Source of the DNA: Halolamina sp. CBA1230
GTDB lineage: Archaea > Halobacteriota > Halobacteria > Halobacteriales > Haloferacaceae
Reading direction: 5' to 3'
Length of the DNA: 64,000 nt
Assembly (NCBI RefSeq): GCF_002025255.2
Contig: NZ_CP054589.1
Location: forward strand, 186,001-250,000
The position numbers and the translations under genes were made by a program. Of the stretch, positions 54,102-58,621 are shown one piece after another. Positions within the stretch are counted from its first letter, which is position 1. The number at the start of each line of letters is the position of its first letter. The notes beneath the pieces were generated by a model, which was given only the letters and a program-made list of their open reading frames with translations, did not search any database and was not told the origin of the DNA.

Positions 54102-54542
54102 CTAGTCCTGGTCTTGCTTTGCCAATTCACGGATCTTCTCTTTCGTTTCTTCCTGATGTTCACCGAACGCCACCTCGAAAATACCCCTATAGAAATGTTT
54201 GTTTTTCTCGAGCGTGATGTCTTCTCGCTTTAATTGCTTCTTTAATCGTGTGAATGTAATCTCAATGTTCTCACTCTGTTCCGGTTCAACATATATCGTG
54301 GCCGAATCCCAATCCTCTCTGATGTTCAATGGTTCATCGTCTGATTTCTGGGTCGACGGTTTATTCTCCGCAGCGGGGGTGGCACTCTGTTGACCTGATT
54401 GCTCTTCGGTTGCTGTTGTCGGGTCACTGTCCCGGCTTTTTGCGTCCGGCATGGCCTCCGTCGGCTCGTCATCGACCGTGGCTTCCTTGTCGTCTGCTTC
54501 TTCTGACGGATCCTCAAATCGCTCGTCCATTCCTCGGGGCAT
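54102..54542 (-). CDS. Partition partner of ParA (ParB-like, centromere binding)
   Basis: 146 residues (or 142 from ATG 54530). The first 80 residues are acidic and disordered. The C-terminal part (WDSATIYVEPEQSENIEITF, TRLKKQLKREDITLEKNKHF, YRGIFEVAFGEHQEETKEKI) could form the DNA-binding domain. It begins two bases after the parA stop on the same strand, the place of the second partition protein. No ParB signature is visible, as for many archaeal partners. Confidence 0.6.
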   Translation of the reverse strand: MPRGMDERFEDPSEEADDKEATVDDEPTEAMPDAKSRDSDPTTATEEQSGQQSATPAAENKPSTQKSDDEPLNIREDWDSATIYVEPEQSENIEITFTRLKKQLKREDITLEKNKHFYRGIFEVAFGEHQEETKEKIRELAKQDQD

Positions 54543-54544
54543 CC

Positions 54545-55456
54545 TTACACCTCCACCTGCGTCTTGTCGAACGCTCGTTCCATTGTCTCAGCAACCTCCA
54601 GGAAGAGCTCGCGCTCGACTTGCTGGTCGTTCGCGTCTTCCCACTCGAAAATATCGCAGCCGTTGTCCCACGCGCGCTGTATCGCCACCCGCATTGGGAG
54701 TTTGAAAATCGGGGCTAGTGACGCATATGACTCGTCGAATGCATCCAGGAACTTCTGTGACTGACCATCATCTCTATACATATTTGCCAACAGTCCAACG
54801 ATTGCAATCTCGATCTGTTGATTATCCTCGATGGATTCCAGCTGGTCCCAGAGATCGTCTAGGGCATCTCGTGATGTGGCTTGGGTTTGTGCGGCCAGGA
54901 ACACGTTCTGCGCCGCGATAAAGGCTGCATCCGTCAGCACCGAGAGATCAGGTGGGCAGTCGATCAAGATAAAATCGTAGTCGTAACCGTCGTCCACTAA
55001 CTCTTCGAGGGCAACTTTCAACGAGAGACGAGCGCCTGCGTCGTCCATCCAATCTCGGGCAAGCCCCATGTCCTTGTGGCTCGGCACCAGATCGAAATTT
55101 AGGTGTTCGTACTCGTCGCTGTGGATCATAATTTCTGAAAGCGTCGTGTCGTCCGTGCGCGGGTTGTCGACGAGGACGTCAAGAAGATTTGCGTCATCGG
55201 TAGCGAGCGTATTTGGAAGGTCGTTCTTCGGGCTTGAGGGGTCGTTGTCGTCGCCCGGGCCGAGTCCCAGGCCTTTCGTCATATCGGCCTGTGGATCCAT
55301 ATCAATCGCGAGGACATCGTGATCTCGCGAGGCCAGTGCTGCGGCGCTGTTTATCGTCGCCGTTGTTTTCCCAGTCCCGCCTTTCTGATTGCCGAAGGCG
55401 ATCGTGGGGATACCAGTCGATGGTGTGACGCCCCAGCCACGGGGTGACTCGGTCAT
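54545..55456 (-). CDS. parA: ParA-family partition ATPase
   Basis: 303 residues. Deviant Walker A KGGTGKTT at residues 25-32, Walker A' AIDMDPQADMTKGLG, Walker B YDFILIDCPPDLS. ParA ATPases move plasmid copies apart using a partner bound at a centromere site. The upstream 400 bases hold a repeat array that is the probable centromere and operator. It lies close to the cdc6-B origin, as is usual for plasmid replication/partition regions. Confidence 0.92.
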   Translation of the reverse strand: MTESPRGWGVTPSTGIPTIAFGNQKGGTGKTTATINSAAALASRDHDVLAIDMDPQADMTKGLGLGPGDDNDPSSPKNDLPNTLATDDANLLDVLVDNPRTDDTTLSEIMIHSDEYEHLNFDLVPSHKDMGLARDWMDDAGARLSLKVALEELVDDGYDYDFILIDCPPDLSVLTDAAFIAAQNVFLAAQTQATSRDALDDLWDQLESIEDNQQIEIAIVGLLANMYRDDGQSQKFLDAFDESYASLAPIFKLPMRVAIQRAWDNGCDIFEWEDANDQQVERELFLEVAETMERAFDKTQVEV

Positions 55457-55800
55457 AGTTCGATCATTGATTCACTGATTCATAAATCTACGCCAGACAT
55501 CGAATCTCGTTCTGGAAATTCTAAAGGTCCGTATTCCGTGGTATAAACCGCTAACAGGCGGTTTTGGTGATGTATTTGGTGGGAATCAAAGAATCACTGA
55601 TTCATTGACTCAACACATCCTGGAATCCCCGCTTTGCTGGGTCCTCGTGGAATGGAGGTTGCTACTGCAGTTGCTGAATGAGTGACTCTGCGCTTCTCGG
55701 AGTGGGGTATTCATTGAATCCCTATTTCTTGGATTCACTGATTCATTGATTCACTGACTCCATGACTCGCCACATCCTATTGGATTCCAAGAATCAAGTA
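55457..55800. repeat. Candidate centromere (parS-like) repeat array
   Basis: Heptamer-like TGATTCA/TGATTCAC units recur in tandem in four clusters: 55466-55482, 55589-55611, 55709-55721 and 55731-55768, plus inverted GGATTCCAAGAATC at 55781-55794. The array starts about 10 bases from the parA start, so it can also act as its operator. No gene is present in 55457-55888. Confidence 0.7.
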
Positions 55801-55888
55801 CTCCTTAACTCCTTGATTTATGGCTTCAGTCAACTGCTCCACGCACGGTGGCGCGGGGCTTGTCAGTGAACTCGGCCTCTGCCGACAG

Positions 55889-56785
55889 TTAGTCGGACGG
55901 GACGAATCCCCGGTTCGGCGTCACGGTTCCTGACTTCAGGGCGAGTTGACCGTCGCCCGTCCGCCGCGACGACTGTAGGCTCCGACGGATATACCGCCAC
56001 CTAACATTCTTCGCTCCAACATAGTCCGCATTCGCTGTCGCACCACATTTCTCGCATTCGAATTCCGCTTGCCTGGCACGGTTCCCTTCGCTCGTGTGTC
56101 CACACTCGGGACACCGCCGACTCGTGTTCTCCGGATCAACGTACTCCACACAGATGCCTTCTGCATCGGCCTTGTACTCCACGAGGTCAACGAGTTGTCG
56201 GTGCGCCCACTGGTGGAACTCCTTCACCGGGGGCGCACGTTCCCGAATATGCCGCAGGTTCTCGAACGCGATGTACGCGCAGCTGTGTTCCAACGCTTCT
56301 TCGATGATGTCGTTGGCCACGCGGTGCAGCACATCCCGAACGTAGCGGGACTCCCTGCCGCTCATCTGCTGGATGGTACGGTGTGCGGACTGCGTGCCGG
56401 TCTGTTGGAGGTTGCCGCGAATCCGCTCGAACTCCCGGTGTCGATGTCCAAGTTCTCTGCCGGACGCGAAATAGGCCGTCGAGGTCGTGGCGATATTGAC
56501 GATGCCGAGGTCGACGCTGTGAACTGTCTTGTCCTCGTCGTCGCCCTGTTTTTCGACCTGTTTCTCGGGCTTCGGTTTGCGAAAGCCGAGATGTAGGTAG
56601 TAGTCGCCATCACGCCGAGAGAGCGTGGATTCGGTGAGTTCCCAGTCCTCGTTGTTGAGGTACTGGTGTTGGTAGCCACCTTCGTCGTCCGGCAACGTGA
56701 GATCGCACCGAATACGGTCGTCGACCGTGGAAAGTGAGACTGTTCCGTCGTCAAATAGTGTCATCGTCCGAGTGTCGTATTTCAC
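55889..56785 (-). pseudogene. tnpB: TnpB, N-terminally truncated
   Basis: The 298-codon frame has the complete catalytic part (D in HSVDLGIVNIAT, E in AFENLRHIRE, D in ANADYVGAKN, zinc finger CPECGHTSEG...CEKCGAT) but lacks about 120 N-terminal residues. The break coincides with the left end of the next element (about 56785), so the insertion plus an adjacent deletion removed the 5' part. Confidence 0.75.
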
Positions 56786-58240
56786 AGGCGGTACGAGGCG
56801 GATGTCCCGACCCTTGAGGTCGGGGAGGAAGCCGACACTCGATGAAACTAACTACGTTCTATAGATAGGCCAGCTCCCCCCCACTCTACTAATAAACTTT
56901 TATTAGGCAACAAAGGTAAATGTGAGCCACAGATGGACGATGCGCTACGACGCACCGTGCCGGTCAAACTCGACGTACCAGAAGAGCGTCGTGGCGACCT
57001 CCATCAAACCAAAGCTCAGTTCTTGCACTGCGCCAACCGCACGAGCGAGTGGGCGTGGCGCTACGACGACTACTGTGTCACCAACAAGAGCAAAGCCGAA
57101 AACGCCCTGTACGACGAGTTGCGCGAGGAAACCGACCTCACCGCCAACCTCGTCCAGAAAGGCATTCGACGCGCCATCGAAGCCGTCCAAAGCGGCGTCG
57201 AGAAACTGAAGCAAGGCGAACAAACGAGTCAACCCGAGTTCGACTCGTGGAGCGTCGTCTACGACAAACGCTCTGCGTCATTCAACGACGACTACGCCAC
57301 GCTCTCTACCCCCGACGGCAGAGTCACTGCTGAATACGTCCTCCCACCCGAGGACGAACGCGAAGACACGCCGTTCGGCAGGTACTACGAGAGTGAGGCG
57401 TGGGATGCGTCGATCGCCACGCTTCAGTACGACGAACAGGAGGATGCGTTCTACCTGCATGTCACGCTGAAGAACCCGAACTACGAGGGTGACGGAACGG
57501 AACGCCAAGAAAGCGAGTCACGTAGTGAGGGTGCCGAGAACGGAGTGGTTCTCGGTGTTGACCTGAACGTGACTGGCGCGTTCGCTGTCACCTCCACAGG
57601 CGAGTTCATCGGCAGTGCGGACTCCCTCACCCACAAGCGCAACCAGTACGAACAACGCCGCGCCAAACTGCAACAGACGGGTACACGGTCGGCTCACCTC
57701 ACGATGCAGTCCATCGGCAGTCGGCTCTCGGATTGGTCATTGGACTGGCTCCACAACCGCGCCAACGACCTCATCACGGAAGCCCAAGACGCGGACGTGG
57801 ACGGCATCATTTTCGAGACCCTTGACCACATCCGCGAGAACATTGCGAACGGGTCGAAGTTCCAGCAGTGGGCCTACGCGAAGTTCGTGGAACTCGTCGA
57901 GTACAAGGTCGAGTCTACGGAGTTGTTCGTGGATACCGTGAATCCGGCGTACACGAGTCAGCGTTGCTCGCACTGTGGGTTTACCCACGAGGACAATCGT
58001 GACGACAAGGCGTTTGAGTGCCAATCATGTGGGTACGAAGTGAACGCGGATTACAATGCCGCGAAGAACATCGCAAATCGGTACTGCGGGTATATCCATC
58101 GCGAGCAGAAGTCTCGCGGTGGATGGGCCACCAGTCAACTGGCCCTCAAGTCAGGGACGTTGAGCGTGAACGGCGACTACACGCCTACCGAACTACTCGG
58201 TTAGAACGGGAGTCCACTGACAAGCCTCGGGGCTTGACCC
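56785..58240 (+). mobile_element. Solo TnpB element
   Basis: Left end CACAGGCGG... with CCCGACC/GGTCGGG at 56808-56823, matching the left end of the element at 45588-46985 in reverse. Right-end hairpin CCTCGGGG/CCCCGAGG at 58223-58243. It separates a truncated tnpB (left) from a truncated HTH gene (right), so a deletion accompanied its arrival. Confidence 0.75.
56933..58204 (+). CDS. tnpB: TnpB RNA-guided nuclease
   Basis: 423 residues. RuvC acids: D in GVDLNVTGAFAV, E in IFETLDHIRE, D in NADYNAAKN. Zinc finger CSHCGFTHEDN...CQSCGYE. Two details differ from its relatives: N in place of G after the first D, and LDHI in place of LTHI. Otherwise a normal, intact member of the subtype at 21186 and 45636. 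Confidence 0.85.
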   Translation: MDDALRRTVPVKLDVPEERRGDLHQTKAQFLHCANRTSEWAWRYDDYCVTNKSKAENALYDELREETDLTANLVQKGIRRAIEAVQSGVEKLKQGEQTSQPEFDSWSVVYDKRSASFNDDYATLSTPDGRVTAEYVLPPEDEREDTPFGRYYESEAWDASIATLQYDEQEDAFYLHVTLKNPNYEGDGTERQESESRSEGAENGVVLGVDLNVTGAFAVTSTGEFIGSADSLTHKRNQYEQRRAKLQQTGTRSAHLTMQSIGSRLSDWSLDWLHNRANDLITEAQDADVDGIIFETLDHIRENIANGSKFQQWAYAKFVELVEYKVESTELFVDTVNPAYTSQRCSHCGFTHEDNRDDKAFECQSCGYEVNADYNAAKNIANRYCGYIHREQKSRGGWATSQLALKSGTLSVNGDYTPTELLG

Positions 58241-58243
58241 CGA

Positions 58244-58359
58244 GGTGGTTGACGGAGAATATACGTGTAGAGGCGAGCGAGCCGTGGCTCTTCGAGTAGC
58301 TGTGCCACTGACATAAGGCCATTAACGGCGCATTCGAGGTCCCCCGTCGCTTTCGACAT
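58244..58359 (-). pseudogene. 5' stump of an HTH gene cut by the TnpB element
   Basis: ATG 58359 reads MSKATGDLECAVNGLMSVAQ, LLEEPRLARLYTYILRQ, then ends at the element border. The pattern matches the start of the HTH protein at 61605 (IPTFAELLENPSLASLYTSI). The rest of the gene is not found on the other side of the element. Confidence 0.6.
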
Positions 58360-58426
58360 ACAATACATAATTCGTATACTGTATAATAACGATTAGGTTG
58401 CAACCGAAGTCGGAGGCGTCCAAGTA

Positions 58427-58621
58427 TCACATTTCGCTTGGTTCGAATGCAGCAGCCAGCTGATCGCGCATATACTTCCGGCAGAGCGTGCGGGCCCGGG
58501 AATCTGAGAGATAATTCTGCAGGACGACGTCGGCACTCGCGCTTCCTTGTTCGGCCGCAATTTCGTCGGTATCATCGATCCCCGCCGACAGTCGCTCGTC
58601 TGCGGCTGATTCCTCAATCAT
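58427..58621 (-). CDS. Possible small protein, 64 residues
   Basis: ATG 58621 reads MIEESAADERLSAGIDDTDE, then SADVVLQNYLSDSRARTLCR and KYMRDQLAAAFEPSEM. Charge and composition are plausible for a haloarchaeal protein, but no family is recognised and it may be a gene fragment; the frame remains open upstream to 58666. Confidence 0.4.
   Translation of the reverse strand: MIEESAADERLSAGIDDTDEIAAEQGSASADVVLQNYLSDSRARTLCRKYMRDQLAAAFEPSEM

What the first reader, a model, noticed from the sequence alone, without database searches (positions are those of the whole stretch)
55457..55800. TGATTCA repeat array beside parA as a candidate archaeal centromere
Clusters of TGATTCA and TGATTCAC units in several phases lie directly upstream of parA, spread over 330 bases. 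Spacing between clusters is irregular. No ParB signature is present in the partner protein, so this would be a partition system with an unrecognised DNA-binding component.
Basis: partly seen in the sequence, partly recalled or inferred. Interest (0 to 1): 0.58.

Follow-up and report, generated by a model that had tools for sequence, protein, structure and literature searches.

The report
Repeat array of archaeal plasmid partition operon
A string of 8-letter DNA repeats in front of a plasmid's parA gene, kept in dozens of salt-loving archaea, is most likely the handle by which the plasmid is grabbed and shared out at cell division, and it makes the little-known archaeal plasmid centromere testable.

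Summary
The real unit is the palindrome TGANTCA plus one base, on a strict 8-bp lattice in phased blocks, 55459-55832; TGANTCANTGANTCA occurs at only three places in the whole 3.47-Mb genome, all here. All 38 close parA-partner loci examined carry it (345 TGANTCA; all 159 steps of 30 bp or less are 8, 16 or 24). Two units sit between the TATA box and the parA ATG in 34 and 36 of 38 loci, and 34 of 38 have TGANTCA near the partner's stop codon; the window lacks that second site and its distal upstream part is cut by a TnpB element.

Best reading: the partner (54102-54542; disordered acidic linker plus a strand-helix-helix domain, no Pfam or NCBIfam match) binds the array, represses its operon and couples the plasmid to a ParA without an HTH domain: a type Ib-like partition system and candidate archaeal plasmid centromere. 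Binding and plasmid stability are not shown.

Beyond the finding: sister subfamilies (one in this genome) use 9-bp repeats, which in 16 of 18 AACGAA-type members also write the partner's linker codons; and the parA promoter element GTCTGACRTANNTTTAT is shared with the host SMC operon (74 of 85 sites).

The parts
55459..55482 (-). Promoter-proximal block: 3 units on an 8-bp lattice (55475-55482, 55467-55474, and weak 55459-55466), between TATA box and parA ATG; candidate operator and array
   Evidence: PWM hits; TGANTCA at -26 in 34 of 38 and at -18 in 36 of 38 relatives
55482..55498 (-). parA core promoter GTCTGGCGTAGATTTAT: conserved GTCTGAC-type element plus TATA-like TTTAT
   Evidence: 1 mismatch to GTCTGACRTANNTTTAT; no match in 100 shuffles; GTCTG[AG] present upstream of parA in 37 of 38 family loci; shared with host SMC operons
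55581..55612 (-). Second block: 4 contiguous units (-156, -148, -140, -132); a further weak unit at 55621-55628
   Evidence: PWM scan
55682..55769 (-). Third block: units at -233, -265, -281, -289, -297, -305, -313, all in one 8-bp phase
   Evidence: PWM scan; TRF period-8 and period-16 rows
55781..55832 (-). Distal degenerate block (-332, -340, -356, -364, -372, -376), ending where homology to uninterrupted relatives stops (55828)
   Evidence: PWM scan; blastn against L007 and L044 ends at 55828
54545..55456 (-). parA: Walker-type ParA ATPase of 303 aa, P-loop at residues 25-32, no N-terminal DNA-binding domain
   Evidence: (AAA_31 8.4e-36 over residues 18-217)
54102..54542 (-). Partner of 146 aa, proposed centromere-binding protein and autorepressor: conserved N-terminus MPRGMDERF, acidic disordered linker, C-terminal strand-helix-helix(-helix) domain
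   Evidence: Invariant columns; AlphaFold domain model; no Pfam, NCBIfam or PHROGs family
55889..56785 (-). TnpB-type gene of an IS200/IS605-like element lying across the distal end of the array (not part of the partition system)
   Evidence: Pfam OrfB_IS605 and Cas12f1-like_TNB; break point at 55828 against L007

Best explanation
The array is the cis-acting part of a plasmid partition operon. Dimers of the partner bind each palindromic TGANTCA side by side every 8 bp, coating the blocks. Bound between TATA box and start codon they shut the parA promoter (autorepression); bound over all blocks they form the partition complex, whose disordered N-terminal tails (conserved MPRGMDERF) engage ParA-ATP on the nucleoid and trigger hydrolysis, so that sister plasmids are moved apart. 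Shown: the array, its lattice, its conservation with this gene pair, its position in the promoter, ParA family and architecture. Inferred: that the partner is the binder, its dimeric ribbon-helix-helix-like fold, repression, and segregation.
For: 38 of 38 close parA-partner loci carry the array (4 or more TGANTCA each, 345 in all; 159 of 159 steps of 30 bp or less are multiples of 8). A further site starts at the partner's stop codon, whose TGA serves as the first triplet of the unit: 34 of 38 have TGANTCA within -30..+150 of that stop. In distant subfamilies of the same parA-partner layout the repeat is a different one (AACGAA type, TTGTGAGAG type and others, mostly 9 bp), as expected if the binder, not a host factor, sets the sequence. 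In 16 of 18 AACGAA-type members the upstream repeat also recurs inside the partner's own coding sequence beyond synonymous-codon expectation. The ParA lacks an HTH domain, so the operator needs another protein. The partner's domain is nearly invariant and is modelled as an unpaired extended stretch plus helices 20-38, 46-60 and 63-78. Neighbouring genes vary: Orc1/Cdc6-like genes match in 11 of 39 stretches and the tyrosine recombinase in 24 of 39, while the array is always there.
Against: No binding or stability data. ParA and partner co-occur in every locus analysed, so covariation cannot separate them. No fold search supported an RHH fold, Pfam gave only one weak RHH hint (RHH_5, E 0.13, one relative), and the first full-length model was poor (pLDDT 50.5). 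Short flanks in some loci leave part of the arrays and neighbours unread. The 38 loci are related, so counts are not independent events.
Confidence: 0.8

Rival explanations
1. The repeats are only an operator: they regulate parA expression, and the centromere lies elsewhere.
For: Two units lie between TATA box and ATG in 34 and 36 of 38 loci, the best conserved part of the region.
Against: One or two units suffice for an operator, yet the array runs for hundreds of bases in several blocks and has a further site behind the operon in 34 of 38 loci.
Confidence: 0.1
2. The repeats are iterons of a replication origin, bound by an initiator such as Orc1/Cdc6.
For: An orc1/cdc6 gene lies 2.9 kb away in the window; iteron arrays are common at plasmid origins.
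Against: An Orc1/Cdc6-like gene was found in only 11 of 39 stretches, some at 22-31% identity, while the array is constant; the array hugs the parA promoter and the partner's stop codon. Flanks held are about 4 kb, so farther cdc6 genes would be missed.
Confidence: 0.06
3. The repeats are sites for the tyrosine recombinase encoded upstream (dimer resolution).
For: A recombinase homologue, or a fragment of one, matches in 24 of 39 stretches, ending about 460-490 bp upstream of parA where intact; in the window only a remnant is left at 58442-58567.
Against: Loci without any recombinase match keep the array; an 8-bp lattice of 7-bp palindromes overlapping a promoter is unlike a crossover site (general knowledge).
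Confidence: 0.03

Closest known systems
pSM19035 delta/omega/parS (ParA, RHH-type ParB, 7-bp WATCACW repeats)
   Same: Small ParA, small partner gene, arrays of short contiguous repeats that overlap the par promoters; four or more contiguous repeats are needed there (PMC9499535, passages). Works like it.
   Different: 8-bp period with a palindromic TGANTCA core instead of non-palindromic 7-bp repeats; blocks at both ends of one operon; partner unrelated by the sequence searches made; archaeal host.
TP228 ParF-ParG-parH
   Same: ParA plus a small protein with flexible N-terminal tail and C-terminal RHH domain that coats an array of short boxes and represses its operon (PMC7308502, passages).
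   Different: Box sequence; no sequence match found; RHH fold of the haloarchaeal partner unproven.
Sulfolobus SegA-SegB
   Same: Archaeal ParA followed directly by a small archaea-specific DNA-binding protein with sites upstream of the cassette (PMC5120986, passages).
   Different: SegB binds a few imperfect palindromes (at the start codon and at -59), not an 8-bp lattice over hundreds of bases; no PDB sequence match for the partner profile.

Membership tests
Type Ib-like ParA partition system (small ParA + small centromere-binding protein + repeat array) | ParA ATPase without N-terminal DNA-binding (HTH) domain | tested here: met
   AAA_31 covers residues 18-217, P-loop at 25-32, no HTH match
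Type Ib-like ParA partition system (small ParA + small centromere-binding protein + repeat array) | Small partner gene directly downstream of parA | tested here: met
   34 of 34 close loci have the partner 0-4 bp after parA; 38 of 38 in the set
Type Ib-like ParA partition system (small ParA + small centromere-binding protein + repeat array) | Tandem short repeats at the par promoter | tested here: met
Type Ib-like ParA partition system (small ParA + small centromere-binding protein + repeat array) | Partner has a ribbon-helix-helix fold | tested here: inconclusive
   Extended stretch-helix-helix order in the domain model; no supporting hit by Foldseek or VIA-align; Pfam RHH_5 E 0.13 in one relative
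Type Ib-like ParA partition system (small ParA + small centromere-binding protein + repeat array) | Partner binds the repeats; array stabilises the plasmid | not testable with these tools
   Needs binding and stability assays
ParABS with HTH, CTP-binding ParB | ParB (ParBc/CTPase) domain in the partner | tested here: not met
   No ParB match in Pfam, NCBIfam or PHROGs
SegAB | Partner homologous to SegB | tested here: inconclusive
   Partner-domain profile found no SegB chain in PDB; a direct profile comparison with SegB was not made
Iteron-type replication origin | Constant adjacent initiator gene | tested here: not met
   Orc1/Cdc6-like gene in 11 of 39 stretches, within the flanks held

The most novel reading that the evidence does not exclude
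Haloarchaeal plasmids carry a large, unnamed family of partition proteins (212 of 391 genomes) that has diversified together with its short-repeat centromeres. In the 9-bp branches the centromere is written into the operon's own codons, so that the disordered linker of the binding protein is encoded by its own binding sites. Across branches the par promoters share the host's SMC-operon promoter element, so plasmid partition would be timed with host chromosome segregation.
Probability: 0.35. Interest if true: 0.78.

Novelty: new variant of a known kind. Interest (0 to 1): 0.64.

Why it matters
A 2016 review lists the nature of centromeres on archaeal chromosomes and plasmids as an open question (PMC5120986). 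This gives a precise, conserved site, its likely binding protein and several orthogonal versions of the pair in easily grown halophiles, one second version in the same genome. It would give haloarchaeal genetics stable vectors and plasmid incompatibility rules. The promoter element shared with SMC operons points to an unknown regulator of archaeal DNA segregation.

Tried and rejected
Replication iterons, recombinase sites and a pure operator were considered (see rivals). Full-length AlphaFold of the partner with 23 close sequences was poor (pLDDT 50.5) and its Foldseek search empty; the domain-only model is better (76.8) but also finds no credible fold neighbour (best VIA-align Z 2.2, ZapA). 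Sequence search of PDB with the partner profile gave nothing meaningful. ParA relatives were not found in viral contigs; partner-domain searches there gave loci on three contigs only. An exact lattice pattern in viral contigs gave 115 stretches, which I did not analyse. CdrS as the factor at GTCTGAC was considered: cdrS deletion or repression lowers smc and changes plasmid soj genes, but its 18 ChIP sites in Haloferax do not include smc or the minichromosomes, so it is not claimed. The 8-bp family was tested for repeats inside the linker codons and shows none beyond chance (2 of 38 below p 0.05). The Halobacterium salinarum pKBTZ02_38 partner hit is a broken remnant without a parA of this family. 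G000 has only 4 exact GTCTGACRTA, none found to precede a parA or SMC gene; the window's promoter has GTCTGGC.

Dropped rows: L039 (partial ParA) and L042 (distant) of the 36 loci; 27 of 115 loci where my motif found no ParA; L262 (wrong partner start). In L037 the parA start was moved by 27 bases; L295 has a probable start error that was left in. Two AACGAA-type members of 18 (L289, L290) do not show codon sharing. The promoter tally was completed by eye: 17 of its 28 'others' were reassigned (4 to SMC, 12 to parA, 1 to a parA remnant) and L335, missed by position, was added.

Full report
What is there. The window is from a haloarchaeal replicon (contig C3, 253 kb, of a 3.47-Mb genome). On the minus strand lie parA (54545-55456) and, two bases further, a 146-aa partner (54102-54542). 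Upstream of parA are blocks of the palindrome TGANTCA spaced every 8 bp. Six TGANTCA fall in 55457-55840 (0.33 expected; none of 5000 shuffles reaches six) and self-similarity peaks at lags 8, 16 and 24. TGANTCANTGANTCA is found at three places in the whole genome, all here.

Conservation. A scan of 84,980 species genomes gave 36 loci for this ParA; the 34 used, with full ParA matches, have the partner 0-4 bp downstream. With the window and three further family members (38 loci) there are 345 upstream TGANTCA; all 159 steps of 30 bp or less are 8, 16 or 24 bp. Upstream autocorrelation peaks at 8 bp in 37 of the 38, and at its multiple 16 in L028. Units at -26 and -18 from the ATG, just downstream of TTTAT, are kept in 34 and 36 of 38 loci. 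In 34 of 38, TGANTCA recurs within -30..+150 of the partner's stop codon, usually with the stop TGA as its first triplet; the window lacks this. Homology of the window to relative L007 breaks at 55828, next to a TnpB gene, so the window's array is a truncated copy. In 23 of 72,556 plasmid records ParA is at least 60% identical, and where the partner is annotated it is called hypothetical.

The partner. It has no Pfam, NCBIfam or PHROGs family. The N-terminal nine residues and the C-terminal 75 are nearly invariant; the linker is not. The domain model (mean pLDDT 76.8; 89-95 over residues 21-40) is an extended stretch followed by helices 20-38, 46-60 and 63-78. This order fits a ribbon-helix-helix protein, whose strands pair only in the dimer (general knowledge), but fold searches gave no support, so the fold stays an inference. 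A profile of the domain finds relatives in 212 of 391 haloarchaeal genomes and 65 of 86 genera.

How it probably works. The ParA has its P-loop at residue 25 and no HTH domain, so it is of the small type that leaves DNA recognition and autorepression to the partner (general knowledge of type Ib systems). Side-by-side dimers on an 8-bp lattice resemble omega on 7-bp repeats, where four or more contiguous repeats are needed to activate ParA (PMC9499535, passages). The window has blocks of about 3, 4 and 5 or more units in phase.

Different branches, different repeats. Of 115 loci, 88 gave a parA-partner pair by my motif. The window's branch has 8-bp TGANTCAN; others have 9-bp repeats such as AACGAA type or TTGTGAGAG type, and many have no clear upstream array. 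The window's own genome carries an AACGAA-type system on the same contig (L091) and a further system on contig C2 with GGTAGCTAA-like repeats. In AACGAA-type members the linker codons share 7-mers with the upstream array beyond 500 synonymous resamplings in 16 of 18 loci (p 0.022 or less; for L091 25 seen, 1.7 expected, 0 of 500), but in only 2 of 38 of the 8-bp branch (p below 0.05). A 9-bp unit is three codons, so the site can be written in coding sequence; an 8-bp unit cannot stay in one reading phase. In several branches without an upstream array the linker codons are themselves more repetitive than expected.

Shared promoter element. GTCTG[AG] lies upstream of parA in 37 of 38 family loci and in many other branches. 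Exact GTCTGACRTANNTTTAT occurs 85 times in 167 genomes of the family, in 70 of them, with no match to the reversed pattern in any genome listed. By my reading, 40 sites precede the DUF7518-SMC operon (Pfam check of one), 33 a parA-type gene, 1 a parA remnant, and 11 something else. Repression of cdrS lowers smc, ftsZ1, ftsZ2 and sepF in Haloferax (PMC8406309, passages) and cdrS deletion misregulates plasmid sojA, sojB and sojE in Halobacterium (PMC7439475, passages), but the 18 CdrS ChIP sites include neither smc nor the minichromosomes (PMC8406309, section 8). The cell-cycle motifs of PMC1906763 (passages) do not match the element either. The factor is unknown.

Novelty. Nine literature searches listed no paper on a centromere or centromere-binding protein of haloarchaeal plasmids; I judged by listings and abstracts, and subscription journals are largely missing. 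The mechanism class is known; the protein family, the site and its two-ended layout appear new. What is not shown is binding, repression and plasmid stability.

Noticed in passing
L091 (G000:C3:122500-127000) and other AACGAA-type loci: A 9-bp repeat upstream of a second parA recurs in the codons of its partner's disordered linker, beyond synonymous-codon expectation in 16 of 18 members.
   Followed up: partly
55482-55498 and L316-L400: Promoter element GTCTGACRTANNTTTAT is shared by plasmid parA genes and the host DUF7518-SMC operon: 74 of 85 sites in 167 genomes, counting one parA remnant.
   Followed up: partly
G000:C2:1-2600 (L310): A further ParA with a small partner and GGTAGCTAA-like repeats upstream.
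   Followed up: no
55829-58440: TnpB-type genes lie between the array and a tyrosine-recombinase remnant at 58442-58567; they seem to have split a recombinase-array-parA arrangement seen intact in relatives.
   Followed up: partly
G068:C2:193099-193536 and 271099-271533: One replicon carries two close copies of this partner, 99% and 84% identical to the window's, which bears on incompatibility.
   Followed up: no
L315 (NZ_CP148058.1): A broken remnant of this partner lies behind an unrelated parA-partner pair in a Halobacterium salinarum plasmid.
   Followed up: yes
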